DNA of 13,436 nt. It comes from Sphingomonadales bacterium (GTDB taxonomy: Bacteria > Pseudomonadota > Alphaproteobacteria > Sphingomonadales > Sphingomonadaceae). The notes beneath the pieces were generated by a model that worked only from the letters and a program-made list of their open reading frames with translations, had not been told where the DNA came from and made no database searches. Location of the stretch: NCBI GenBank assembly GCA_027489295.1, contig JAIYAA010000117.1, positions 1 to 13,436 on the forward strand. Reading direction: 5' to 3'. A program made the translations under genes and the position numbers. Positions 2,258 through 13,235 of the stretch are shown in pieces; position 1 is the stretch's first letter; every line of letters starts with the position of its first letter.

Positions 2258-2309
2258 CTGAAAACGAAGCTCCGGCCCGGGACGATTCCCGGGCCGGAGC
2301 CGTTTTCAG
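2258..2309. terminator. Bidirectional rho-independent terminator
   Basis: A near-perfect inverted repeat. Core stem GCTCCGGCCCGGGA (2269-2282), loop CGAT, TCCCGGGCCGGAGC (2287-2300). Outer arms CTGAAAACG (2258-2266) and CGTTTTCAG (2301-2309) extend the pairing apart from two unpaired A's at 2267-2268. The A run on one side and T run on the other give a U tract in either direction. It lies 33 bases after the lpd stop and 68 bases beyond the stop of the convergent lectin gene, so it can end both transcripts. Confidence 0.85.
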
Positions 2310-2377: not shown

Positions 2378-3199
2378 TCAGGCGTCGGCCAGCGCCTGCT
2401 GCGACGAGCGCTGCAGCTCCAGGCCGATCGGCCCTTCGCCCTGATAGGTCATCGTTCCGTCGATTTCGGTGCCGTTGCCCGTCGTCTTGATCGCCACCAC
2501 GCCCTGGTTGGTGCGGCAGCCCAGCACCCAGGTGCCGCCCGGATGCCACGGCGCATCGTTGCCGCCCCACTGGTTCACCACGCTGTAGGTATTGGCCATC
2601 ACCAGCGTGCCGCGGAATCCGATCGGGCCTTCGCCCTGATAGGTCATGGTGCCCGCCAGCGTCTTGCCGCCGTCGCCGCTGCTGAGGTCGAGCGCCACCA
2701 CCGGCTGGTTGGGCCGGCAGCCGAGCACCCACTGGCCACCCGCATGCCACGGCGCATGGTCCCCGCCCCACTGATTCTGGGCGTTGAAGGCAACGCCGTC
2801 GGACACGGCACCCTTCACGCCGATCGGGCCCTCGCCCTGATAGGTCATCGTGCCGGTGAGCGTCGCGCCCTGGTCGTTCGAGTGCAGGTCGAAGGCGACC
2901 GGGTTCTGGCCGCCGCGCGCGCCCAGCAGGAACAGGCCCGCATCGTGCCATGGCGCGCTGCTGCCGCCCCACTGGTTCTCGACCCGGTAGCAGTTGGTCG
3001 TCACCAGCGTTGCGCGCACGCCGATCGGACCTTCGCCCTGGTAGGTCATCGTGCCGCTGAAGCTGTGCCCACCATCGCCGGACTGAATCTTCAGCGCGAT
3101 CGGCCGCTGGTCGGCGCGGTTGCCGATGTTGAAGATGCCGCCTTCATGCCAGGGCGCGCTGTTGCCACCCCATTGATTCTGGATCGCATAGACCGTCAT
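2378..3199 (-). CDS. Four-repeat OAA-type (OAAH/MBHA-like) mannose-binding lectin
   Basis: A 273-residue protein of four tandem beta-strand repeats of about 67 residues, starting near residues 2, 69, 136 and 203. Each carries NQWGG, then APWH, a conserved Arg, and GTMTYQGEGPIG. This is the signature of the Oscillatoria agardhii agglutinin family, which binds branched high-mannose glycans; Myxococcus hemagglutinin MBHA also has four repeats. Positions known to line the OAA sugar sites are kept: W10, R28, E56 and W77, R95, E123, with matching residues in repeats 3 and 4. The last repeat is two residues shorter. There is no signal peptide or membrane segment, so the product is probably cytosolic or released another way. 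ATG 3199 is preferred because GGAGAG lies five bases upstream and the first repeat starts there; the 23-residue extension to 3268 is unlike the repeats. It is divergent from the GT-C-like gene. The biological ligand is unknown. Confidence 0.93.
   Translation of the reverse strand: MTVYAIQNQWGGNSAPWHEGGIFNIGNRADQRPIALKIQSGDGGHSFSGTMTYQGEGPIGVRATLVTTNCYRVENQWGGSSAPWHDAGLFLLGARGGQNPVAFDLHSNDQGATLTGTMTYQGEGPIGVKGAVSDGVAFNAQNQWGGDHAPWHAGGQWVLGCRPNQPVVALDLSSGDGGKTLAGTMTYQGEGPIGFRGTLVMANTYSVVNQWGGNDAPWHPGGTWVLGCRTNQGVVAIKTTGNGTEIDGTMTYQGEGPIGLELQRSSQQALADA
2424..3050 (-). repeat. Tandem in-gene DNA repeats of the lectin
   Basis: Four near-identical stretches of about 30 bases, each starting CCGATCGG on the + strand at 2424, 2619, 2820 and 3021, mark the QGEGPIG end of each lectin repeat. 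The spacing is 195, 201 and 201 bases, that is 65, 67 and 67 codons. Conservation is high even at third codon positions in this block and much lower between blocks. This fits duplication of a coding module followed by divergence, or gene conversion of the sugar-site loop. Confidence 0.9.
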
Positions 3200-3569
3200 C
3201 GCATCTCTCCTGCATTTTTTTGGACGCGCCGCTCCCATTCGAAACGCCGCTTGGCGCATCGTTTGCAAACGACTGAAAACAGATCCAGCACAATGCTAAA
3301 CCTGTTCATATCGGTTGTTTTTATCGTTGGATGCCACCCCGCAGATACGACGACTCGTATCTACATCTTCATTCTACGCCAATTGGTCTCTACTGCAAGC
3401 ATATGAACCTCTACTTGCAAACAACTTTTCCCGCCGAGGCGCGGCGGCGCCACGATCGCCCACACGCCCGACGAACCGCCCCGGTGGCGCGAGGGCGCGC
3501 TGGCGTCGTACCGTTTTCGCTCCTAGACTCCCGGCACAAACCCTCTCTGCCGCGCAGGAAAGTTCCCGG
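3200..3569. promoter_or_regulatory. Divergent AT-rich regulatory region, lectin / GT-C-like gene
   Basis: A 370-base gap without a convincing gene. By hand count, 57 of 130 bases at 3291-3420 are G or C (44%), far below the flanking genes. It holds a perfect 12-base palindrome CGTTTGCAAACG (3260-3271), about 60 bases before the lectin start; an 8-base inverted repeat AGATACGA/TCGTATCT (3343-3350 and 3355-3362, loop CGAC); and a second TTGCAAAC at 3415-3422. Open frames inside it are short or lack ribosome sites. The remainder, 3430-3569, returns to high GC, and I see no clear + strand promoter there. Confidence 0.55.
3371..3398 (-). promoter_or_regulatory. Candidate sigma70-type promoter for the lectin gene
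   Basis: Read on the minus strand: TTGCAG (-35 like, 3393-3398), a 16-base spacer, then TAGAAT (-10 like, 3371-3376). It would give a leader of about 165 bases containing both palindromes at 3343-3362 and 3260-3271. Motif match only; closer start sites cannot be excluded. Confidence 0.3.
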
Positions 3570-5057
3570 ATGACCATGTATCGCTCGCGTTCCCAGGCCT
3601 TTGGCGGTGCGCCGCGTGGCCGGGGCGGGCGACCGCTGCAGCGGGTACCGATCGGCCCGCGTCGCAAGGCGGTGGCAGCGCTGGTGGCCGGTGGCTTGCT
3701 GGCGCTCCTCAGTCTCGTCTTCTTCTGGCCCGGCGTCGCCAGCTACGACAGCGTGGTGCAATATCAGCAGGTGCTGGGAGACAGTTTCGACGACTGGCAC
3801 CCGCCGGCGATGGCACGCCTCTGGGCGCTGGCAAATGCGGCCGGCTGGAGCGGCCAGGCGCCGATGTTCGTGCTGCAGATGCTGCTCTACTGGGCCGGCC
3901 TTACCCTGTTCGCCGGCGCGCTGGCACGGCGGCGGCAGGCGATCGCTGCGCTGGTGGTGCTGATGCTCGGCATCTGGCCGCCGCTACTCGGCTGGCAAAT
4001 CGCCGTGCTGAAGGACGGGCAGATGGCCGGCGCGCTGCTCGCGGCGGTGGGCGTGGCGAGCTGGTGGCGGCTCGATGGGCGGAGGCTGCCGCTTTGGGCC
4101 GCTGCGGCGGTGGTGGTGCTGCTCGGCTATGCGACGCTGGTCCGGTTCAACGCCGCCTTTGCCACGGTGCCGCTCGCCTTCGGGCTGCTCGGCGGGCTGC
4201 GCTGGGAGCGGCCACTGTTCCACGCCGTGCTGGTGCTGGCGACCACGGCGGCGGTGATCGGGGTCCTGACGCCGATCAACCAGCGCCTCCTCCAGGCCAA
4301 GCCGAGCGGGGTCGAACGCTCGCTGCCGCTGTTCGATCTGGCCGGTATCGTCCATCATGCCGGGCCGGATGCCGTGCCGCTGGTCCCCGCCCGGCTGTGG
4401 CGCCGCGCAGAGGCCAAGGGCTGCCTCACGCCGATCCTGTGGGACCCGATCGGGGACGAGCGCGCCTGCGGCTATATCGTCGACACGATGCAGCGCGCCG
4501 CGGCGGGGGCCAAGCTGCGCAACGCCTGGCTGCAGGGCATCGCCACGCATCCGCTGGCCTATGCCGAACACCGGATCGCGCATTGGAACAGCGAGATGCG
4601 GCTGTGGATGCCGGCGACCATGCCGGGCACCGGCCCGCTCGCCCGCTCCGAGCCCAACACGCTCGGCCTGGGCTCGCCCGACAAGCGGATCACCGGCTTT
4701 CAGAAGGCCGGCTACACGCTGGCGAGCAGCGCGGCCGGCGCGCCGATCCTGTGGTTCGCGCTGGCGCTGGGCGTGCTGTTCTGCAGCTGGCCCGCACGCG
4801 ACGGCGCCGGGGGCGTCGCCATCACGCTCGCGCTTTCCGCCATCGTCACCGAACTGGCCTTTGGTGTCGTCGGCGTCGCCTCGGACTATCGCTATCACTG
4901 CTGGGGGATGCTGGCCGCCGGGCTGGCGCTGCTCGCTGCCAGCGGCACGCGCATTTCGCCCCGCCGGGCCGCGATCGCCGCGATCGGCATCGCTGTGGTG
5001 GCGGTAGTGGTGGTCATCGCGCGGACCACGCTGCCGCCGGCCATGCCACCGCTCTGA
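3570..5057 (+). CDS. Polytopic membrane protein, GT-C glycosyltransferase-like
   Basis: A 495-residue integral membrane protein. A basic N-terminus of about 33 residues precedes helix 1 (about 34-54). Straight after it come PGVASYDS (Asp60), then DDWHPP at 74-79 and VLKD at 146-149, a pattern of acidic loop residues seen in GT-C membrane glycosyltransferases and related uncharacterised families. Several helices follow up to about residue 250, then a soluble stretch of about 130 residues and three or four C-terminal helices. Such enzymes move a sugar from a lipid-phosphate carrier on the periplasmic side; that role is inferred here, not shown. ATG 3570 is chosen because AGGAAAG lies at 3556-3562; the open frame reaches 3315, but those 85 extra residues are low-complexity and cross the AT-rich gap. 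It is divergent from the lectin and 66 bases before GH51. Confidence 0.72.
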   Translation: MTMYRSRSQAFGGAPRGRGGRPLQRVPIGPRRKAVAALVAGGLLALLSLVFFWPGVASYDSVVQYQQVLGDSFDDWHPPAMARLWALANAAGWSGQAPMFVLQMLLYWAGLTLFAGALARRRQAIAALVVLMLGIWPPLLGWQIAVLKDGQMAGALLAAVGVASWWRLDGRRLPLWAAAAVVVLLGYATLVRFNAAFATVPLAFGLLGGLRWERPLFHAVLVLATTAAVIGVLTPINQRLLQAKPSGVERSLPLFDLAGIVHHAGPDAVPLVPARLWRRAEAKGCLTPILWDPIGDERACGYIVDTMQRAAAGAKLRNAWLQGIATHPLAYAEHRIAHWNSEMRLWMPATMPGTGPLARSEPNTLGLGSPDKRITGFQKAGYTLASSAAGAPILWFALALGVLFCSWPARDGAGGVAITLALSAIVTELAFGVVGVASDYRYHCWGMLAAGLALLAASGTRISPRRAAIAAIGIAVVAVVVVIARTTLPPAMPPL

Positions 5058-5123: not shown

Positions 5124-6698
5124 ATGCTTCGAAAGACACTGCTCGCCGGAGCGGCCCTGCTGCTCGCGCCCCTGCCGGCGCTGGCGCAGGACGTAACCGT
5201 CACGGTCGATGCCGCCAAGCCGGGCACGGTGATCGATCGCCACATCTTCGGCCAGTTCGCCGAGCATCTGGGCGCCGGCATCTATGGCGGCATCTGGGTC
5301 GGCAAGGAGTCGACCATCCCCAACACCCGCGGCATCCGCAAGGACGTCGTCGCCGCACTCCGGGCGATCAAGGTGCCGGTGGTGCGCTGGCCGGGCGGCT
5401 GCTTCGCCGACGAATATCACTGGCGGGACGGCATAGGGCCGCAGAACCAGCGCAAGAGCAGCGTCAACACCAACTGGGGTGGCGCGGGCGAGCCGAACAG
5501 CTTCGGCACCGACGAGTTCATGGACTTTGCCGACCAGGTCGGCGCCGAGGCCTATGTCTCGGTCAATGTCGGCTCGGGCACGGTGCAGGAAGCGGCCGAA
5601 TGGCTCGCCTACTTGACCGCCGATGCGTCCACCACGGCGGGCAAGGAGCGTGCGGCCAACGGCCATGTCGCGCCCTACAAGGTGAAGTGGCTGGGCCTCG
5701 GCAACGAGAGCTGGGGCTGCGGCGGATCGATGCGGCCCGATGCCTATATCGATCTGATGAAGCGCTTCGCCCGCTTCACCCACAATCTCGATCCCAAGCA
5801 GGGCGAGAAGGGCCCGGAGCCGATGCAGCGCATCGCGGTGGGCCCGAACGACGCCGACACCACCTATACCGAAGCGGTGATGGCCGCGTGGAAGGGGCAT
5901 GACTGGGCCTGGAACATCGAGGGCCTGTCGATGCACGCCTACACCACCGGCGGCTGGCCGCCCTCCTATCCCAGCGTCGGCTTCGACGAGACCGGCTATG
6001 CAAGGCTGGTCAAGGCCGCGCTGGCGATGGACGGGATGATCACCAAGCATTCGGCGATCATGGACAGGTACGATCCAGAGAAGAAGGTGCCGCTGGCGAT
6101 CGACGAATGGGGCGTGTGGCTGGCGCCGCTGCCGGGATCCAACCCTGGCTTCCTCTACCAGCAGAACTCGCTGCGCGACGCGATCATCGCCGCGCTGCAC
6201 TTCAACATCTTCGCGCGCCATGCCGATCGGGTACGGATGACCAATATCGCGCAGATGATCAACGTGCTCCAGGCGATGATCCTCACCGACAAGGAGAAGA
6301 TGGTCCTTACCCCAACCTACCACGTGTTCCGCATGTACGTGCCCTTCCAGGATGCGCAGGCGGTGCCGGTGTCGTTCGACGCGGGGACCTACACCCAGGG
6401 TGGCGTGACGATGCCGCGCGTCGACGCGATCGCGGCGCGGGGCAAGGACGGCAAGCTGTGGCTGGCGGTGACCAACCTCGATGCCGGCAAGCCGGCGCGG
6501 ATCGCGGTGAAGTTCGCCGGGCCTCAGGCCAAGAGCGCCAAGGGCGAGGTGCTCACCGCGGCGAAGGTCGATGCGGTCAACAGCTTCGAGGCACCCAATG
6601 TAGTGGCACCGAAGCCGATCAGCGGCAGCGTGGCCAAGGGCACCGTGACGCTGGAGTTGCCGGCGAAATCAGTCGCGGTGGTCGAGATCGGCGGGTAA
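5124..6698 (+). CDS. Alpha-L-arabinofuranosidase, GH51, exported
   Basis: A 524-residue glycoside hydrolase that releases terminal L-arabinofuranose from arabinan, arabinoxylan or arabino-oligosaccharides. A Sec signal peptide is visible at residues 1-21, with a hydrophobic core and ALA before Gln22, so it acts in the periplasm or outside. Clan A catalytic residues appear in their expected contexts: acid/base Glu195 in GLGNESWG and nucleophile Glu328 in AIDEWGVW. Other GH51 landmarks are FGQFAEHLG near the N-terminus, VRWPGGCFADEYHW and the later FNIFARHADRV. A C-terminal beta-rich domain follows from about residue 400. Length is typical. The ribosome site GGGAGG lies at 5113-5118. It faces the AraD1-type gene convergently and opens the pentose-use island. 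Many GH51 enzymes are cytosolic, so export is worth noting. Confidence 0.95.
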   Translation: MLRKTLLAGAALLLAPLPALAQDVTVTVDAAKPGTVIDRHIFGQFAEHLGAGIYGGIWVGKESTIPNTRGIRKDVVAALRAIKVPVVRWPGGCFADEYHWRDGIGPQNQRKSSVNTNWGGAGEPNSFGTDEFMDFADQVGAEAYVSVNVGSGTVQEAAEWLAYLTADASTTAGKERAANGHVAPYKVKWLGLGNESWGCGGSMRPDAYIDLMKRFARFTHNLDPKQGEKGPEPMQRIAVGPNDADTTYTEAVMAAWKGHDWAWNIEGLSMHAYTTGGWPPSYPSVGFDETGYARLVKAALAMDGMITKHSAIMDRYDPEKKVPLAIDEWGVWLAPLPGSNPGFLYQQNSLRDAIIAALHFNIFARHADRVRMTNIAQMINVLQAMILTDKEKMVLTPTYHVFRMYVPFQDAQAVPVSFDAGTYTQGGVTMPRVDAIAARGKDGKLWLAVTNLDAGKPARIAVKFAGPQAKSAKGEVLTAAKVDAVNSFEAPNVVAPKPISGSVAKGTVTLELPAKSVAVVEIGG

Positions 6699-6718
6699 TC
6701 AACTTCCCCACAATGAAC

Positions 6719-6751
6719 AGGGGGAGCGACGCGCAAGGCGTTGCTCCCCCT
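6719..6751. terminator. Convergent terminator-like hairpin, GH51 / AraD1-type gene
   Basis: AGGGGGAGC (6719-6727) pairs with GCTCCCCCT (6743-6751). Five further inner pairs, one of them G-T, close on the loop GCAAG (6733-6737), giving 14 pairs in all. It lies 20 bases after the GH51 stop and 47 bases past the stop of the convergent gene. There is no clear U tract on either strand, so termination strength is uncertain. Confidence 0.55.
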
Positions 6752-6770
6752 ACCCTGCAGTGCTCGGTTG

Positions 6771-6790
6771 CCCTCCCTGTGCCGGGAGGG
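6771..6790. repeat. C-rich short palindrome
   Basis: CCCTCCC (6771-6777), loop TGTGCC, GGGAGGG (6784-6790), a perfect seven-pair stem just beyond the 3' end of the AraD1-type gene. It may add to termination on the minus strand. It is similar in make-up to 786-808 and 8808-8830. Confidence 0.45.
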
Positions 6791-6798
6791 CGCAGACC

Positions 6799-7794
6799 TT
6801 ACAGCGTCTTCACCGTCGTCAGCCCGGTGTCTTCCACCTGCGCCAGCGGGTTGCGCAGCGGCAGGGTGAACGGCGCGGCCTCGATCTCGAACGTGTCGCC
6901 CACTTCCGTCTTCACGCCGTCGCTGAACGACAGCGTCGCGGTGCCGAAGAAGTGGACGTGCACGTCGCCCGGCTGGCGGAACAGCCCGTACTTGAAGTGA
7001 TGATGCTCGAGATTGCCGAGCGTGTGCGACATGTTCGTCTCGCCCGACAGGAACGGCTTTTCCCAGATCGTCGCGCCATCGCGCATGATCCGGCTGGTGC
7101 CGCGCACGTCGCTCGGCGCCGCGCCGACCAGCAGCTCGGGCCCCAGGGCTGCCTGGCGCAGCTTGGAATGCGCCAGCCACAGATAATTGTGCCGCTCGGT
7201 CACATGGTCGCTAAACTCGTTGGCAAGGCACAGGCCGATGCGCCACGGGCTGCCGTCCGGGCCGATCAGATAGACGCCGGCCAGTTCCGGCTCCTCGCCG
7301 CCGTCCTGCGCGAAGCCGGGCATCTCCAGCGCGTCGCCGGGGCCGACCAGATGGTGGCCATTGCCCTTGTAGAACCATTCGGGCTGCTGGCCGATCGCGC
7401 CTTCGCCCGGCTTGCCGCCCTCGACGCCTTCGAGGAACATCCGCATCGAATCGGTCTTGTGCTCGGCCGCTGCCGCATCGCGGTGCATCTTGTCACGCCC
7501 CTCGGCCGAGCCGAGATGGGTAAGGCCGGTGCCGGTCAGTACCAGATGCGCGCCGTCCGGATGATCGATCGGTGCCAGCAATTGCCCCGCCGCCAGCGCC
7601 TCGGCCGGATCGACCGAGCCTTCGCGCCCTGCCGCCGCCACCGCCTCGGCGAGCGACTGACCCGCTTCGATCGCCTGCAGCGCTAGGCTGCGGACGTCGG
7701 TGGCGCCGCGCACGAAGCCCGCGCCACTGTCGTCGGCGGCGATCACCCGCCGCACGCCATCGCTTCCCAGATACTGCATCAACCGCAACGTCAT
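6799..7794 (-). CDS. AraD1/GguC-type dehydratase (FAH superfamily), 2-keto-3-deoxy-pentonate
   Basis: A 331-residue protein of the fumarylacetoacetate hydrolase superfamily, of the kind annotated AraD1 or GguC. Related enzymes such as Caulobacter XylX dehydrate 2-keto-3-deoxy-pentonate to alpha-ketoglutarate semialdehyde, the step after the IlvD/EDD dehydratase. Acidic residues in GGEEPELAG (about 165-173) and ANEFSDH (191-197) sit where the family binds a divalent metal. The C-terminal half has LGNLEHHHFKYGLFRQPGDVHVHFFGTATLS, typical of this branch. Two in-frame starts exist, 7800 and 7794. I prefer 7794 because GAGGAG on the minus strand ends seven bases before it, against one base for 7800. 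It is divergent from the GntR regulator across an operator-like site. Whether the substrate is the L-arabinose or D-xylose intermediate is inferred from the neighbouring arabinofuranosidase. Confidence 0.82.
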   Translation of the reverse strand: MTLRLMQYLGSDGVRRVIAADDSGAGFVRGATDVRSLALQAIEAGQSLAEAVAAAGREGSVDPAEALAAGQLLAPIDHPDGAHLVLTGTGLTHLGSAEGRDKMHRDAAAAEHKTDSMRMFLEGVEGGKPGEGAIGQQPEWFYKGNGHHLVGPGDALEMPGFAQDGGEEPELAGVYLIGPDGSPWRIGLCLANEFSDHVTERHNYLWLAHSKLRQAALGPELLVGAAPSDVRGTSRIMRDGATIWEKPFLSGETNMSHTLGNLEHHHFKYGLFRQPGDVHVHFFGTATLSFSDGVKTEVGDTFEIEAAPFTLPLRNPLAQVEDTGLTTVKTL

Positions 7795-7817
7795 CGACAT
7801 GCTCCTCATCCTCGGTT

Positions 7818-7828
7818 TAGTCCGACAT
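7818..7828. promoter_or_regulatory. GntR-type operator-like site between AraD1-type gene and regulator
   Basis: TAGTCCGACAT on the + strand, ATGTCGGACTA on the minus strand, matches five of six fixed positions of TNGTNNNACNA in either direction. It overlaps a second small dyad, CCGA-N5-TCGG (7822-7834). On the minus strand it overlaps a weak -10 candidate TATGTC, 17 bases after TTGCCA. The site would suit negative control of the AraD1-type gene and self-control of the regulator. No strong + strand promoter was found in the gap. Confidence 0.35.
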
Positions 7829-7918
7829 ATTCGGGTCTGCCCGGAATGGCAATCGCACATCGTTTGCGGGACCCCCATGCTTCGCGCTACACATGAAAAT
7901 ATGCAGGAGAGCGAGCGG

Positions 7919-8677
7919 ATGGCATTGGACGAACAGGCGGACGGCGTGGACGAAGCAGGCGTGCAGCCGATCACCCGCACGCCCAAGGGCTCCGGCCGTC
8001 GTCTGCGCGGAGCAATCGCCCATTATCTCGGCACCCAGATCGTCTCCGGTGCGATCGCCCCCGGCGAAAAGCTGACCGGCGAGGTTGCCAATGCCGAGGC
8101 GCTGGACGTCTCCCGCAGCGCCTATCGCGAGGCGGTGCAGGTGCTAACCGCCAAGGGGCTGGTGGAAAGCCGGCCCAAGGCCGGCACCCGCGTGTTGCCG
8201 CGTGCGCGCTGGAATATGCTCGATCCGCAGGTGCTCGCCTGGGCCTTTTCCGGCGAGCCCGACACCGATTTCGTCCGCGACCTGTTCGAGCTGCGCGCGG
8301 TGGTGGAGCCCGCCGCCGCCCGTCTCGCCGCCGAACGCCGCGACCGCGACGATGTGAAGGCGATGCGCGACGCGCTCACCAAGATGCGGCGCCACACGCT
8401 GGCGACCGACGCCGGCCGCGCGGCGGACCGCGACTTCCACGACGCGCTGCTGGAGGCCACGCACAACAATGCGCTGGTCGCCCTCAGCGCCAGCATCGGC
8501 GCCGCGGTGAGCTGGACGACCAAGTACAAGCAGCGCGCCCGCGCGCTTCCGCGCGATCCGGTGCCCGATCACATCAAGGTGTTCGACGCGATCGCCGCCG
8601 GCGATGCCGATGCCGCCGCCGCGGCGATGCGCACGCTGGTCGACCTCGCGCTGGAAGATACCCGCCTCTCGATGTGA
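7919..8677 (+). CDS. FadR-subfamily GntR transcriptional regulator (DgoR-like)
   Basis: A 252-residue DNA-binding regulator. The N-terminal winged helix-turn-helix spans about 27-95, with ALDVSRSAYREAVQVLTAKGLV as the recognition region and KAGTRV as the wing. The linker RWNMLDPQVLAW is characteristic of DgoR-like sugar-acid regulators. The C-terminal FCD ligand domain, about 115-245, shows Asp170 and His174 in ADRDFH and His218 in PDHIKVFDAI, which fit the metal-binding pattern; a further His expected near residue 240 is Leu. ATG 7919 is chosen for AGGAG at 7905-7909; in-frame ATGs at 7901 and 7877 lack a good ribosome site. It lies between pentose genes and is divergent from the AraD1-type gene, so it probably represses them until a sugar-acid intermediate accumulates. 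The effector is inferred. Confidence 0.88.
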   Translation: MALDEQADGVDEAGVQPITRTPKGSGRRLRGAIAHYLGTQIVSGAIAPGEKLTGEVANAEALDVSRSAYREAVQVLTAKGLVESRPKAGTRVLPRARWNMLDPQVLAWAFSGEPDTDFVRDLFELRAVVEPAAARLAAERRDRDDVKAMRDALTKMRRHTLATDAGRAADRDFHDALLEATHNNALVALSASIGAAVSWTTKYKQRARALPRDPVPDHIKVFDAIAAGDADAAAAAMRTLVDLALEDTRLSM

Positions 8678-8743
8678 CGGTGTCCAATATCCGCCGGACA
8701 CGGGGAGGTAACCGGCCGAAGGCTTGGACGAGGGTGCCCCCGC

Positions 8744-8782
8744 AAAGAAAAGGGGTGCCCGCCGTCACCGGCGGTACACCCC
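8744..8782 (-). terminator. Rho-independent terminator for the permease gene
   Basis: Stem GGGGTG (8752-8757) with CACCCC (8777-8782) and inner CCGCC (8759-8763) with GGCGG (8770-8774). On the minus strand the hairpin is followed by TTTTCTTT (complement of 8744-8751). It sits 56 bases past the permease stop and fits as its terminator. It may also block read-through from the convergent regulator gene. Confidence 0.7.
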
Positions 8783-8807
8783 TCCACCACCACCTGCGGC
8801 GGCGGTC

Positions 8808-8830
8808 CGCCTCCCCCAATGGGAGAGGCG
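8808..8830. repeat. C-rich short palindrome near permease 3' end
   Basis: CGCCTC-C-CCC (8808-8817), loop AAT, GGG-A-GAGGCG (8821-8830), a ten-position stem with one C-A mismatch. It lies eight bases beyond the permease stop. Together with the 8744-8782 hairpin it fills the 161-base convergent gap between regulator and permease. Confidence 0.45.
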
Positions 8831-8838
8831 TGCTTCGA

Positions 8839-10140
8839 TCAATCCTCAATCGCGTTGGTGGGCTTGGCGCCCCACAGCGCGTAGAAGAGGATGTAGAGTT
8901 CACAGATCGCGGTCAGCAGGAACGAGTTCTGCAGGCCATAGGTATCGGCCAGCCAGCCCTGTACCGCCACCAGCGCGCCGCCGGCGATCGCCATGATCAG
9001 CAGGCCCGAGCCTTCCTCGGTCAGCGGGCCGAGGCCCTTGATGCCGAGGGTGAAGATCGTCGGGAACATGATCGAGTGGAACAGACCCACCAAGATCAGC
9101 GACCACATCGCCACCTCGCCGTGCGTGAACACGGTGACCATCATCACCACGAACGCGCCGATCGAGAAAACGGCGAGGACGACGCCCGCATCCACCTTCT
9201 GCATGATCGCCGAACCGACGAACCGGCCGACCATCATTCCGCCCCACAACAGGGTGAGGTAGCGGCCCGCCTGCTCGGTCGTCATGTTGCCGATCTCGGG
9301 ACGGCTGACGAAGTTCACGAACAGATTGCCGACGCCGATCTCGGCGATCAGGTAGATGAAGATCGCGCCGATGCCGAACACCAGGTTGCGGTGGTTCCAC
9401 AGGCTGTGGTGCTTGCGATCCTCCTTGGCGACGCGGCTGGTCGCCGAACCCATCGCCGGCAGCGGGAAGCGCGCGATCACGATCGCGAGCACCAGCAGCA
9501 CCGCGGCGACGAGCACGTAGGGCAGGATCACCGCGTGCGCGTCGGCCAGACGCTCGGCCTGGGTGAGCGCGGCCGCACCCGCCTCCGCCGTGCCGCCCTT
9601 CGAGCGACCGAGGATCAGGTACGCGCCGAACAACGGCGCGAGCATCGTGCCGGCCGAGTTCATCGCCTGCACCAGGTTGAGCCGCGACGAGGCGGTTTCG
9701 GACGGGCCGATCACCGCGACATAGGGATTGGCCGCCACCTGCAGCAGCGTGATGCCGCTGGCGATGACGAACAGCATGAACAGGGTAACGCCGTAGGACG
9801 GCAGGCTCGCCGCCAGCGTCATGCCCAGCGCCCCGGCCGCCATGATCAGCAGGCCGATCACCAGCGACTTCTGGTAGCCGATCCGCTCGATCAGCTTGGC
9901 CGAGGGGATCGAGGCGAAGAAATAGGCGATGAACCAGACGCTCTCGATCAGCGCCGCCTGGAAATAGCTGAGCTCGAACACGCTGCGCAGATGCGGCAGC
10001 AGCGTCCCGTTGATCACGGTGATGAAGCCCCACATGAAGAACAGCGTGGCCAGCAGGGCCAGCGCGCGTCCATAATGCGTGGGAGGAGAGGCTTGCCCGG
10101 CCCCCGCCGGAGCAGCCTTTGACGTAGGCACGACCGCCAT
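8839..10140 (-). CDS. MFS sugar permease, FucP/GluP type
   Basis: A 433-residue, roughly 12-helix inner-membrane transporter of the fucose/glucose-galactose MFS branch. Signature segments are FFMWGFITVINGTLLPHL at 34-51, the LQVAANPYVAVIG stretch from 133, SRLNLVQAMNSAGTMLAPLFG, and the C-terminal half motif PTIFTLGIKGLG. Compared with E. coli FucP as I recall it, the proton-coupling positions Asp46 and Glu135 appear as Gly45 and Gln134, which points to the GluP-like branch. The substrate is probably the pentose released by the exported arabinofuranosidase, but glucose or galactose cannot be excluded from sequence. ATG 10140 is preceded on the minus strand by GAGAGG, 11 or 12 bases upstream, a slightly long spacing. 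It is divergent from the epimerase gene and shares a 144-base control region. Confidence 0.9.
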   Translation of the reverse strand: MAVVPTSKAAPAGAGQASPPTHYGRALALLATLFFMWGFITVINGTLLPHLRSVFELSYFQAALIESVWFIAYFFASIPSAKLIERIGYQKSLVIGLLIMAAGALGMTLAASLPSYGVTLFMLFVIASGITLLQVAANPYVAVIGPSETASSRLNLVQAMNSAGTMLAPLFGAYLILGRSKGGTAEAGAAALTQAERLADAHAVILPYVLVAAVLLVLAIVIARFPLPAMGSATSRVAKEDRKHHSLWNHRNLVFGIGAIFIYLIAEIGVGNLFVNFVSRPEIGNMTTEQAGRYLTLLWGGMMVGRFVGSAIMQKVDAGVVLAVFSIGAFVVMMVTVFTHGEVAMWSLILVGLFHSIMFPTIFTLGIKGLGPLTEEGSGLLIMAIAGGALVAVQGWLADTYGLQNSFLLTAICELYILFYALWGAKPTNAIED

Positions 10141-10185
10141 GCTGGTATGATCCTCTCGATTTTGCCACGTACGACCGCGGCGGGG

Positions 10186-10215
10186 TTGCTCTTCGCTTTC
10201 TAGTCGGAGTATTCA
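10186..10215 (+). promoter_or_regulatory. Candidate promoter and operator-like site, epimerase-dehydratase operon
   Basis: TTGCTC (10186-10191), an 18-base spacer and TATTCA (10210-10215) form a weak sigma70-type match. TAGTCGGAGTA (10201-10211) overlaps the -10 by two bases, exactly as TTGTCGGAGTA does at the GH51 promoter. An inverted repeat GTCGG (10203-10207) / CCGAC (10218-10222) surrounds the -10. The site could also govern the divergent permease gene. Confidence 0.35.
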
Positions 10216-10284
10216 ACCCGACGTCCAGCGTCAACGGCCGCGTCGCAGCTGATCGCCGCGATAGCCCATAGGGAGAGGATTTGC

Positions 10285-11418
10285 ATGAATTATCTGATCA
10301 AGGGCGCCCTGCTCGCCGCGGCGATGGTTCCGCTCTCGGCGCATGCCGGCGAAGCGACTCGCGCGGCCTTCGGCACGACTGCGGATGGCAAGAAGGTGGA
10401 GGCGATCACCCTCACCAACGGGCACGGCATGCGCGCGACGATCCTCAGCTACGGCGCGATCCTCCAGTCGCTGGCGGTGCCCGATCGTACCGGCAAGTCC
10501 GAGGACGTGACGCTCGGCTACAACGACATGCAAGGCTATCTGGTCGCCCCGAACTATTTCGGCGCCTCGGTGGGCCGCTATGCCAATCGCATCAAGAACG
10601 GCACCTTCGCGATCGACGGCAAGACCTACACGCTCGCCAAGAACAATGGCCCGAACGCGCTGCACGGCGGCCTGAAGGGCTTCGACAAGCGGCTGTGGAC
10701 GGTGGAGAAGGTGACCAGCGGCGACACCGCGAGCGTCACCCTGCGCTACATCGCGGCAGACGGCGAGGAGGGCTATCCCGGCCAGCTGACCGTCACCGCC
10801 ACCTATGCACTGAACGAGAAGAACGAGCTGTCGGTCGAGTACACCGCGACGACGACCAAGCCGACCATCGTCAACATCACCAACCACAGCTTCTTCAACC
10901 TCGCCGGTGAGGCCTCGCAGCGCTCGATCTACGATAATGTCGTGACGATCCCAGCCGATGCGACCACTCCGGTCGACAAGACGCTGATCCCCAGCGGCCA
11001 GCTCCGCCCGGTCGAGGGCACGCCGTTCGATTTCCGGAAAGCCACCGTGATCGGCACCCGCATCCGCGACGGCCGCGATCCGCAGATCGTGTTCGGCCAG
11101 GGCTATGACGAGAATTTCGTGATCGCCAAAAGCGTGTCGGCCCAGCCGGTGCTCCACGCCCGCGTCGAAGATCCGTCGAGCGGCCGGGTGATGGAGATCC
11201 TCTCCAACCAGCCGGGCGTGCAATTCTACACCGGCAACTTCCTCGACGGCACCGCGATCGGCAAGTCGAACCACGCCTATCGCCAGGGCGACGGCCTCGC
11301 GCTCGAGCCCCAGGTCTTTCCGGACACGCCCAACCAGCCGGCGCTGGGCTCGGCGCGGCTGAATCCGGGGCAGACCTATCGCAACGTGATCGTCTACCGT
11401 TTCTCGACGACCAACTGA
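10285..11418 (+). CDS. galM: Aldose 1-epimerase (mutarotase), exported
   Basis: A 377-residue galactose-mutarotase-like enzyme that interconverts alpha and beta anomers of free aldoses. A signal peptide covers residues 1-21, with Ala-His-Ala before Gly22, so it acts in the periplasm. Family landmarks are [24 protein letters not shown] with His127, NHSFFNL with catalytic His201, QGYDENFV, and [13 protein letters not shown] with catalytic Glu341. Length is normal for exported members. The start ATG 10285 follows GGAGAGG at 10271-10277. The dehydratase gene begins 23 bases after its stop, so the two are probably one operon. In this setting it most likely prepares L-arabinose or another pentose for uptake, though family members accept several aldoses. 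Confidence 0.94.
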
Positions 11419-11441
11419 TCTTCCTCCCGCAAGGCACTTCC

Positions 11442-13235
11442 ATGACCGATACCCCGCCGAAACTGCGCAGCCGCGCCTGGTTCGATAATCCCGACAATGT
11501 CGACATGACCGCCCTCTATCTGGAGCGGTACCTCAACTACGGGCTGAGCCTGGAGGAACTGCGCTCGGGCAAGCCGATCATCGGCATCGCCCAGACGGGG
11601 TCGGACCTCAGCCCCTGCAACCGCCACCACCTCGTCCTCGCCGAGCGCATCCGCGAAGGCATCCGCGAGGCGGGCGGCATCGCGATCGAGTTCCCTGTGC
11701 ATCCGATCCAGGAAACCGGCAAGCGGCCCACCGCGGGCCTCGATCGCAACCTCGCCTATCTGGGCCTGGTCGAGCTGATCTACGGCTATCCACTCGACGG
11801 CGTGGTGCTCACCACCGGCTGCGACAAGACCACGCCCGCCTGCCTGATGGCGGCGGCGACGGTGAACATCCCGGCAATCGCCTTGTCGGTGGGGCCGATG
11901 CTCAACGGCTGGCACCGCGGCGAGCGCACCGGCTCGGGCACGATCGTGTGGAAGGCGCGCGAGCTGCTGGCGGCAGGTGAGATCGACGACGAGGGCTTCA
12001 TCCGCCTGGTCAGCTCGTCGGCGCCGTCGACCGGATATTGCAATACGATGGGCACGGCGACGACGATGAACAGCCTCGCCGAGGCGCTGGGCATGATGCT
12101 GCCGGGTTCGGCGGCGATCCCCGCCCCGTATCGCGACCGGCAGGAAGCCGCCTATCGCACCGGCAAGCGCATCGTCGACATGGTGCACGAGGACCTCAAG
12201 CCCTCCGACATCCTGACGCGCGAGGCGTTCCTCAACGCGATCGTCGTCAACTCGGCGATCGGCGGATCGACCAACGCGCCGATCCACCTTGCCGCCATCG
12301 CCCGCCATGTCGGCGCGGAACTGGCGCTGGACGACTGGCAGACCCATGGCCACAAGGTGCCGCTGCTGGTGAACCTGCAGCCGGCCGGCGAGTATCTCGG
12401 CGAAGATTATTACCGCGCCGGCGGCGTGCCCGCCGTGGTCGCCCAGCTGATGCAGCAGGGCCTGATCCACGAGAACGCGATCACTGCCAACGGCAAGACG
12501 ATCGGCGACAATTGCCGCGATGCGACGATCGAGGACGAGAAGGTCATTCGCAGCTTCGATCAGCCGCTGGTGGAAGCGGCCGGCTTCGTCGTGCTGCGCG
12601 GCAATCTGTTCGATGCCGCGATCATGAAGACGAGCGTGATCGGCCCCGAATTCCGCGACCGCTATCTCTCCAACCCGAACGATCCCGAAGCGTTCGAGGG
12701 ACCGGTCGTCGTGTTCGACGGCCCCGAGGATTATCACCACCGCATCGACGATCCCGCCACCGGCATCACGCCGGACACGCTGCTGGTGATGCGCGGCGCC
12801 GGCCCGATCGGCTATCCGGGTGCTGCGGAAGTGGTGAACATGCGCGCGCCGGCCTATCTGATCCGCGAAGGCGTGCATGCGCTGCCATGCATCGGTGATG
12901 GGCGCCAGTCGGGCACGTCGGCCTCGCCGTCGATCCTCAACGCCTCGCCCGAGGCCGCGGCGATGGGCGGCCTGGCGCTGCTCAAGACCGGCGACCGCGT
13001 GCGGATCGACCTCAACCGCGGCACCGCCGACGTGCTGATCCCGGCCGACGAACTCGCCGAGCGCCGCCGCGCGCTGGCCGAGGCAGGCGGCTTTGCCTAT
13101 CCGGCGTCACAGACGCCGTGGCAGGCGATCCAGCGCGCCGTGGTCGGCCAAATGAACACCGGCGCGATCTTGGAGGGCGCCGAGCAGTTCCAGCGCATCG
13201 CCCAGACCCACGGCGTGCCCCGCGACAACCACTGA
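11442..13235 (+). CDS. IlvD/EDD-family pentonate dehydratase (L-arabinonate or D-xylonate)
   Basis: A 597-residue iron-sulfur dehydratase converting a pentonate to 2-keto-3-deoxy-pentonate in the cytoplasm, the second dehydrogenation product's fate in the Weimberg-type route. The three cluster cysteines are Cys59 (DLSPCNRHH), Cys127 ([11 protein letters not shown]) and Cys200 ([10 protein letters not shown]). Lys129 is the expected carbamylated Mg2+ ligand, and a SGTS serine group lies at 490-493. The opening, [27 protein letters not shown], is typical of the sugar-acid branch rather than of dihydroxyacid dehydratase (IlvD). A weak AAGG precedes ATG 11442, 23 bases after the epimerase stop, consistent with coupling. 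L-arabinonate is favoured by the linked arabinofuranosidase, but D-xylonate is a real alternative because the branch includes XylD enzymes. Confidence 0.9.

What the first reader, a model, noticed from the sequence alone, without database searches (positions are those of the whole stretch)
2378..3199. Four-repeat OAA-type high-mannose lectin in a sphingomonad-like genome
The sequence directly shows four NQWGG...APWH...GTMTYQGEGPIG repeats at about 67-residue spacing. The residues that line sugar pockets in OAA (W10, R28, E56, W77, R95, E123) are at the same numbers here. This family is known mainly from cyanobacteria, myxobacteria and some pseudomonads and binds high-mannose glycans. All four repeats keep the pocket residues, so up to four binding sites are predicted. 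A role in self-recognition, predation or host contact is inference.
Basis: partly seen in the sequence, partly recalled or inferred. Interest (0 to 1): 0.72.

Follow-up and report, generated by a model that had tools for sequence, protein, structure and literature searches.

The report
OAA-family mannose lectin of Sphingomonas
This is a sugar-binding protein of a known family, carried by a minority of Sphingomonas species; the protein is ordinary for its family, but the stretch in front of its gene is unusually well kept and may tie its production to the cell cycle.

Summary
Four NQWGG...GTMTYQGEGPIG repeats start at residues 8, 75, 142 and 209, and all four predicted mannose pockets are complete. 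Pfam PF17882 and NCBIfam NF050073 match far above cut-off; AlphaFold2 gives the two-barrel OAA fold (pLDDT 93.1; TM 0.93-0.95 to BOA and MBHA). As a protein it is a new member of a known family; public sources already name Sphingomonas copies 'lectin OAA family protein'.

New here are distribution and regulation. 18 of 295 Sphingomonas genomes carry it, and 0 of 396 other genomes sampled from the family. It lies within 3.2 kb of, and convergent to, the dihydrolipoyl dehydrogenase gene in 15 of 19 carriers; four close relatives show a lectin-free site. Eight close orthologues share a leader of about 160 nt with three hairpins supported by compensatory changes, not in Rfam, strongly matched only before the lectin. 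A GcrA/CcrM-type site (YGAKTCK) lies before 16 of 19 lectin genes against 21 of 244 other ORFs. Inference: a cytoplasmic agglutinin, possibly cell-cycle-timed, that meets foreign high-mannose glycans when cells break. Role, target and regulation are untested.

The parts
2378..3199 (-). OAA-family lectin gene, 273 aa, four ~67-residue repeats, no N-terminal leader visible (first beta strand is residues 2-9)
2268..2301 (-). G+C-rich hairpin with T-rich tail after the lectin stop, in the convergent lpd/lectin gap; terminator-like
   Evidence: 1 found, 1.0 expected in shuffles, so weak by itself; a similar hairpin is seen by eye at the same place in relatives printed
3205..3213 (-). Shine-Dalgarno-like GCAGGAGAG, invariant in the 8 close orthologues
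3231..3276 (-). leader hairpin P3 (weakest of the three)
   Evidence: 84.5% of 103 cells paired, 2 of 500 shuffles reach it
3277..3307 (-). leader hairpin P2
   Evidence: 95.0% of 100 cells paired, 6 cells changed on both sides, 0 of 500 shuffles reach either
3341..3364 (-). leader hairpin P1, 10-bp stem with constant GTCG loop, followed by conserved GGGTGGC
   Evidence: 93.8% of 80 cells paired, 12 cells changed on both sides, 0 of 500 shuffles reach either
3351..3357 (-). CGAGTCG, fits the extended GANTC (GcrA) consensus YGAKTCK; in the P1 loop region, GAGTC begins 14 nt after the -10-like hexamer
3371..3376 (-). -10-like hexamer TAGAAT
   Evidence: not called by the sigma-70 scan
3393..3398 (-). 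weak -35-like TTGCAG (TTGC kept in the 8 orthologues)
   Evidence: not called by the sigma-70 scan

Best explanation
The gene encodes an OAA-family high-mannose lectin of the four-repeat (BOA/MBHA) build: two fused beta-barrels with four predicted pockets for branched alpha-mannose (family specificity 3alpha,6alpha-mannopentaose). Shown by sequence and model: family, fold, complete pocket residues, purifying selection, no visible export signal. Inferred: the protein stays in the cytoplasm as a multivalent agglutinin and acts on foreign high-mannose glycans (protist grazers, fungi, plants) when cells lyse or are eaten. Shown by comparison: its own conserved upstream region, a -10-like element, then a GcrA-type GANTC site about 8 nt into the predicted transcript, then, in the close relatives, a three-hairpin leader. 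Inferred: a weak sigma-70 promoter helped by GcrA on methylated DNA, so that output follows the cell cycle, with the hairpins stabilising or tuning the mRNA. The gene is an accessory trait of a minority of Sphingomonas species, lost and/or regained repeatedly, mostly at the lpd locus. The confidence given is for family, fold, sites and the conserved upstream region; for the cytoplasmic role alone I would say 0.4, for GcrA control alone 0.35.
For: Family and fold. All 28 pocket positions tested are complete in 13 of 19 Sphingomonas copies: the window and 12 of the 18 others. dN/dS 0.099, 0.087 and 0.116 to L054, L001 and L002. The first barrel strand is at residues 2-9, whereas metagenome relatives P0003 and P0081 carry an apparent leader (by eye). 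Distribution. lpd within 63-3122 bases and on the opposite strand in 15 of 19. Lectin-free sites. Own clade (99/94) apart from BOA, MBHA and Nostoc lectins. Leader structure; sense-strand fit 257 versus 207 of 283 cells; 7 of 295 genomes match the leader model at E <= 2.1e-17, each next to the lectin, the next match being 0.0016. GcrA-type site: 16 of 19 versus 21 of 244; GAGTC/GACTC is first of 512 5-mers in a blind scan; GcrA family protein in 17 of 18 carrier genomes.
Against: No binding, localisation or expression data. The sigma-70 scan calls no promoter here. The leader is confined to the 8-member clade; 11 of the 18 carrier genomes do not match it. Two covariation measures do not exceed shuffles for P1 (pairs with a both-sided change 77 of 500; pair types 213 of 500), and pair types do not for P2 (210 of 500) or P3 (69 of 500). 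Folding energy is unremarkable in L001, L003 and L005 (z -0.85, +0.66, -0.81). The YGAKTCK site is absent from the tested stretch in 3 of 19 (L053, L056, L006), and that stretch was chosen after seeing the sequences. Carrier genome G246 shows no GcrA hit, and the GcrA search also rings in a control archaeon. Two copies are decaying: L012 is frameshifted and L008 has one pocket destroyed and changes in the other three. Label clustering on the lpd tree is modest (21 of 500 shuffles as low).
Confidence: 0.72

Rival explanations
1. The lectin works at the cell surface, as an adhesin to plant or other host glycans or by binding the cell's own exopolysaccharide, leaving the cell by a leaderless route.
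For: Carriers include named strains recalled as soil, plant or exopolysaccharide producers (titles; habitats recalled). MBHA of Myxococcus is recalled as a surface and periplasmic developmental lectin.
Against: No visible signal peptide or anchor: the model puts the first strand at residues 2-9. No conserved secretion or polysaccharide gene was recognised beside it among the neighbours examined; only ten neighbour proteins were given to Pfam.
Confidence: 0.3
2. The lectin serves the neighbouring sugar-use cluster (arabinofuranosidase family, AraD1 family, GntR regulator, MFS sugar transporter, aldose epimerase, dihydroxy-acid dehydratase family).
For: The arabinofuranosidase gene lies within 2 kb in the window and in 7 relatives.
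Against: The same genes stand without lectin in 4 of 4 lectin-free relatives, and 11 of 19 carriers have no such arabinofuranosidase gene in the held flank. The lectin is divergent from the cluster and has its own leader.
Confidence: 0.04
3. The conserved upstream element is only a DNA operator; the hairpins are inverted repeats, not RNA.
For: CGAGTCG occurs in either orientation (L007 and L012 have the reverse) and in lineages whose hairpin is not specially stable.
Against: In the 8-member clade the stem arms of P1, P2 and P3 change on both sides and still pair, and pairing fits the lectin-sense strand better (257 versus 207 of 283 cells; the structure was derived on that strand, which favours it).
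Confidence: 0.25
4. The lectin is cargo of phages or gene transfer agents.
For: In Sphingomonas sp. PAMC 26605 it lies between terminase large subunit and portal genes of a GTA-like head cluster; the one IMG/VR hit is the same DNA.
Against: No match in 50,697 phage or 72,556 plasmid records. None of the 22 other terminase loci held (about 3-4 kb each) has a lectin hit, and 15 of 19 copies lie by lpd.
Confidence: 0.04

Closest known systems
Burkholderia oklahomensis agglutinin (BOA) and Myxococcus xanthus hemagglutinin (MBHA), four-repeat OAA-family lectins
   Same: Four repeats, two barrels, 58-59% identity, TM 0.93-0.95 over 264-269 columns; all four pockets kept.
   Different: The Sphingomonas copies fall in a separate clade with metagenome sequences (99/94); last repeat two residues shorter, then a short flexible tail ending in ALADA.
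OAA, PFA and PTL, two-repeat OAA-family lectins
   Same: Same barrel (TM 0.94-0.96 normalised to the target) and the same numbered pocket residues (PTL paper PMC8166773, passages seen).
   Different: Two repeats and two sites, not four.
GcrA/CcrM-controlled promoters of Caulobacter and Brevundimonas
   Same: Site fits YGAKTCK, the hypothesised consensus quoted in PMC7987155 (passages seen), at a predicted place inside -40..+40 of the start.
   Different: Start only predicted; no binding, methylation or depletion data. A search for papers joining at least two of GcrA, lectin and Sphingomonas listed 15 of 355, none on a GcrA-controlled lectin by title or abstract start.

Membership tests
OAA-family lectin | Profile match over curated cut-off | tested here: met
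   PF17882 253.6 bits (cut-off 20); NF050073 376.3 (cut-off 150)
OAA-family lectin | Tandem repeats of ~66 residues | tested here: met
   Four repeats, 67-residue spacing; definition from PMC8166773 passages
OAA-family lectin | Pocket residues W, GG, R, E, GP at each site | tested here: met
   All four sites complete in the window
OAA-family lectin | Beta-barrel made of two repeats, sites at both ends | tested here: met
   AF2 pLDDT 93.1, pTM 0.89; Foldseek to BOA, MBHA, OAA. Pocket geometry itself was not measured
OAA-family lectin | Binding of 3alpha,6alpha-mannopentaose | not testable with these tools
   needs purified protein
GcrA/CcrM-controlled promoter | YGAKTCK site | tested here: met
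   CGAGTCG in the window; 16 of 19 lectin upstreams versus 21 of 244 other ORFs
GcrA/CcrM-controlled promoter | Site within -40..+40 of the transcript start | tested here: inconclusive
   About +8 from a predicted start; no mapped start
GcrA/CcrM-controlled promoter | GcrA encoded in the genome | tested here: inconclusive
   17 of 18 carrier genomes; the window's own genome is not held; CcrM not searched
GcrA/CcrM-controlled promoter | GcrA binding and dependence of expression | not testable with these tools
   needs ChIP-seq and depletion
any Rfam family (for the leader) | Score at or above a gathering threshold | tested here: not met
   whole window, none; 3210-base region of the leader at E <= 10: three microRNA families far below their thresholds

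The most novel reading that the evidence does not exclude
A bacterial lectin whose synthesis is timed by DNA methylation and the cell cycle (GcrA/CcrM) and tuned by a dedicated three-hairpin leader RNA; the site follows the gene to different loci while the flanking sequence diverges.
Probability: 0.25. Interest if true: 0.6.

Novelty: new member of a known kind. Interest (0 to 1): 0.38.

Why it matters
OAA-family lectins are studied as antiviral proteins, while what they do for the bacteria that make them is, to my knowledge, open. Here is a genus with natural carriers, natural lectin-free relatives and a conserved upstream region, so role and timing can be tested with a gene removal and a reporter. 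If the GcrA reading is right, it would say when such a lectin is made, which I did not find in print.

Tried and rejected
A perfect palindrome TCGTTTGCAAACGA at -73 looked like an operator but is in the window only (1 of 19). A link to the membrane-protein-like ORF 3570-5057 was considered because its family flanks the lectin in 10 of 19 carriers; rejected, since relatives occur in 165 of 295 genomes while only 18 carry the lectin, and the lectin lies on either side of it. That ORF has no match in Pfam, NCBIfam or PHROGs and only an E 0.12 match in the PDB. Carriage on phages and plasmids was rejected. A wider set of genes under the same leader was looked for and not found: 6 of 16 genomes hold the pattern, once each, before the lectin, and the model gives 7 strong matches in 295 genomes (strict filters may lose weak ones). 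The mRNA-stability idea leans on a recalled report of unusually stable MBHA mRNA; no held paper joined the terms. The test uses a stretch (-190..-95) chosen after inspection; the blind scan is fairer, though the grouping into nine lineages was mine. Function searches on cytoplasmic defence lectins gave fungal examples only by listing; none was read.

Full report
What is there. The minus-strand gene 3199-2378 encodes 273 residues with four repeats starting NQWGG at residues 8, 75, 142 and 209; the end motif GTMTYQGEGPIG is identical in all four. Pfam PF17882 (253.6 bits, four stretches) and NCBIfam NF050073 (376.3 bits) match far above their cut-offs. A sequence search of the PDB gives 7 distinct chains, among them MBHA, BOA, SfL-1, PFA and OAA. 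An AlphaFold2 model from a 31-row alignment has mean pLDDT 93.1 and pTM 0.89. Foldseek's nine matches at E <= 0.001 are all OAA-family chains, TM 0.93-0.95 to BOA and MBHA.

Pockets. Passages of the PTL paper (PMC8166773) give for the W77 site E56, G57, P58, G78, G79 and the network Q31/R28/E56, and W10 with R95 and E123 for the other. Mapped to the window (the second barrel by repeat symmetry), the sites are W10-G11-G12-R95-E123-G124-P125, W77-G78-G79-R28-E56-G57-P58, W144-G145-G146-R229-E255-G256-P257 and W211-G212-G213-R162-E190-G191-P192, all complete. All 28 positions are complete in 13 of 19 Sphingomonas copies, the window included. L003, L005 and L006 each lack one proline and L004 two; L008 (S. 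pokkalii) has one site destroyed and a change in each of the others; L012 is frameshifted, so its second half could not be scored. dN/dS (Nei-Gojobori, own script) is 0.099, 0.087 and 0.116 to L054, L001 and L002, 0.174 to L005, 0.261 to L008 and 0.328 to the more distant L058; five pairs not involving the window give 0.039-0.165.

Distribution. In the nine Sphingomonas genomes reached, four repeat matches in one place were found in each. In the genus, 18 of 295 genomes carry the family. In a sample of the taxonomic family 1 of 397 matched, the reference genome G001 itself, so 0 of 396 others. A protein search found 461 relatives, of which 120 were listed, with names from Sphingomonas, Myxococcus, Nostoc, Burkholderia, Massilia and a red alga; several Sphingomonas copies are already named 'lectin OAA family protein'. 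In a 61-row tree of my choosing (19 locus rows, 22 named or selected proteins, 20 metagenome proteins) the 20 Sphingomonas rows and 15 metagenome rows form one clade (99/94); a row named Candidatus Sulfotelmatobacter and three metagenome rows come next, and BOA, MBHA and the cyanobacterial rows lie outside.

Locus. In 15 of 19 carriers, window included, lpd (dihydrolipoyl dehydrogenase) lies 63-3122 bases away on the opposite strand; in L006, L007, L012 and L059 it is not in the held flank. In some, another gene lies between (membrane-protein family in L058 and L061, amidohydrolase family in L056 and L057). Four relatives, G276, G025, G106 and G178, have the same gene order without lectin, with roughly 0.2 kb or less between lpd and the membrane-protein gene. 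On an lpd DNA tree of 35 rows (15 carriers; the 20 non-carriers among the best lpd matches, so not a random sample) presence needs 8 changes, 7-8 in bootstraps, 6 forced by well-supported branches; 21 of 500 label shuffles are as low. One gene tree cannot tell loss from regain. L006, L007, L012 and L059 are not in that tree.

Leader RNA. Eight close orthologues (window, L001-L005, L008, L054) were aligned over the 159-167 bases before the start codon. RNAalifold finds 39 pairs, 14 with a both-sided change. P1: 93.8% of 80 cells pair, 12 cells changed on both sides, 0 of 500 shuffles as high, at most 65% in slid versions. P2: 95.0% of 100 cells, 6 such cells, 0 of 500, at most 50% when slid. 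P3: 84.5% of 103 cells, 2 of 500, at most 49.5% when slid. Measures that do not stand out: number of pairs with both-sided change in P1 (77 of 500) and pair types in P1, P2 and P3 (213, 210 and 69 of 500). Pairing fits the lectin-sense strand better, 257 versus 207 of 283 cells, though the structure was derived on that strand. Folding z-scores over 165 nt are -4.90 (window), -0.85, -4.56, +0.66, -2.56, -0.81 (L001-L005), -2.15 (L008) and -2.91 (L054). Rfam has no family for it. A covariance model of P1 and P2 matches 7 of 295 genomes at E 2.3e-22 to 2.1e-17, all at the lectin; 11 further genomes have matches between 0.0016 and 1, which I take as chance; 11 of the 18 carriers lack a real match. 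The element pattern is absent from the four lectin-free relatives.

GANTC site. A blind count of 512 strand-collapsed 5-mers and 2080 6-mers in 400 nt before 19 lectin genes, weighted to nine lineages, puts GAGTC/GACTC first (7.5 of 9) and CGACTC and CGAGTC first and second of the 6-mers (6.5 and 6.0; next 4.6; Shine-Dalgarno CAGGAG 4.0). The site fits YGAKTCK, given in PMC7987155 (passages) as the hypothesised GcrA consensus on CcrM-methylated DNA; the same passages note that GANTC is over-represented at least 1.5-fold in intergenic regions of nearly all Alphaproteobacteria, which weakens the background. It occurs at -190..-95 in 16 of 19 lectin upstreams, against 21 of 244 other ORFs of the same loci and 732 of 12436 windows of the loci (ORF starts called mechanically). 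A TA...T hexamer with at least 4 of 6 matches lies 13-15 nt before it in 12 of 19 (the 8-member clade, L055, L058, L061, L059); such a hexamer within 9-18 nt occurs at 604 of 7600 random positions. GcrA is found in 17 of 18 carrier genomes, not in G246; the control rings in Caulobacter as expected but also in one archaeon. The consensus scan calls no sigma-70 promoter here, and no start is mapped. A weak -35 would suit an activated promoter, but that is inference.

How it probably works. Shown by computation: family, fold, complete pockets, constraint, no export signal by eye and model, conserved upstream region. Inferred: binding of branched mannose, cytoplasmic storage with effect on cell breakage or ingestion, GcrA-timed transcription, effect of the leader. 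I found no paper on this lectin in Sphingomonas (open-licence papers, listings only).

Verdict. As a protein, a new member of a known kind and expected. The regulatory anatomy is the part worth following up.

Noticed in passing
L006:5558-13329 (Sphingomonas sp. PAMC 26605): The lectin lies between terminase large subunit and portal genes of a GTA-like head cluster, in the same direction; IMG/VR lists this stretch as a viral contig (L151, identical DNA). Terminase homologues occur in 21 of 21 genomes searched; none of the 22 other terminase loci held has a lectin hit.
   Followed up: partly
L008:8001-8822 (S. pokkalii) and L012:5703-6526 (Sphingomonas sp. Ant H11): Lectin copies in decay: one pocket destroyed and changes in the other three in L008, a frameshift in L012.
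   Followed up: partly
window 3570-5057: A 495-aa membrane-protein-like ORF without match in Pfam, NCBIfam or PHROGs and only E 0.12 in the PDB; relatives in 165 of 295 Sphingomonas genomes.
   Followed up: partly
P0003, P0081 (metagenome relatives): Four-repeat OAA-family proteins with an apparent N-terminal export signal, unlike the Sphingomonas copies (by eye).
   Followed up: no
window 5124-13235: Sugar-use cluster: arabinofuranosidase family, AraD1 family (GguC), GntR regulator, glucose/galactose-type MFS transporter, aldose epimerase, dihydroxy-acid dehydratase family; the arabinose reading is inferred, since the L-arabinonate dehydratase model is below its cut-off.
   Followed up: no
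upstream of L007:8004 and L012:5712: A different set of predicted leader hairpins before the lectin of the S. echinoides lineage; z -4.07 in L007 but -0.13 in L012.
   Followed up: no
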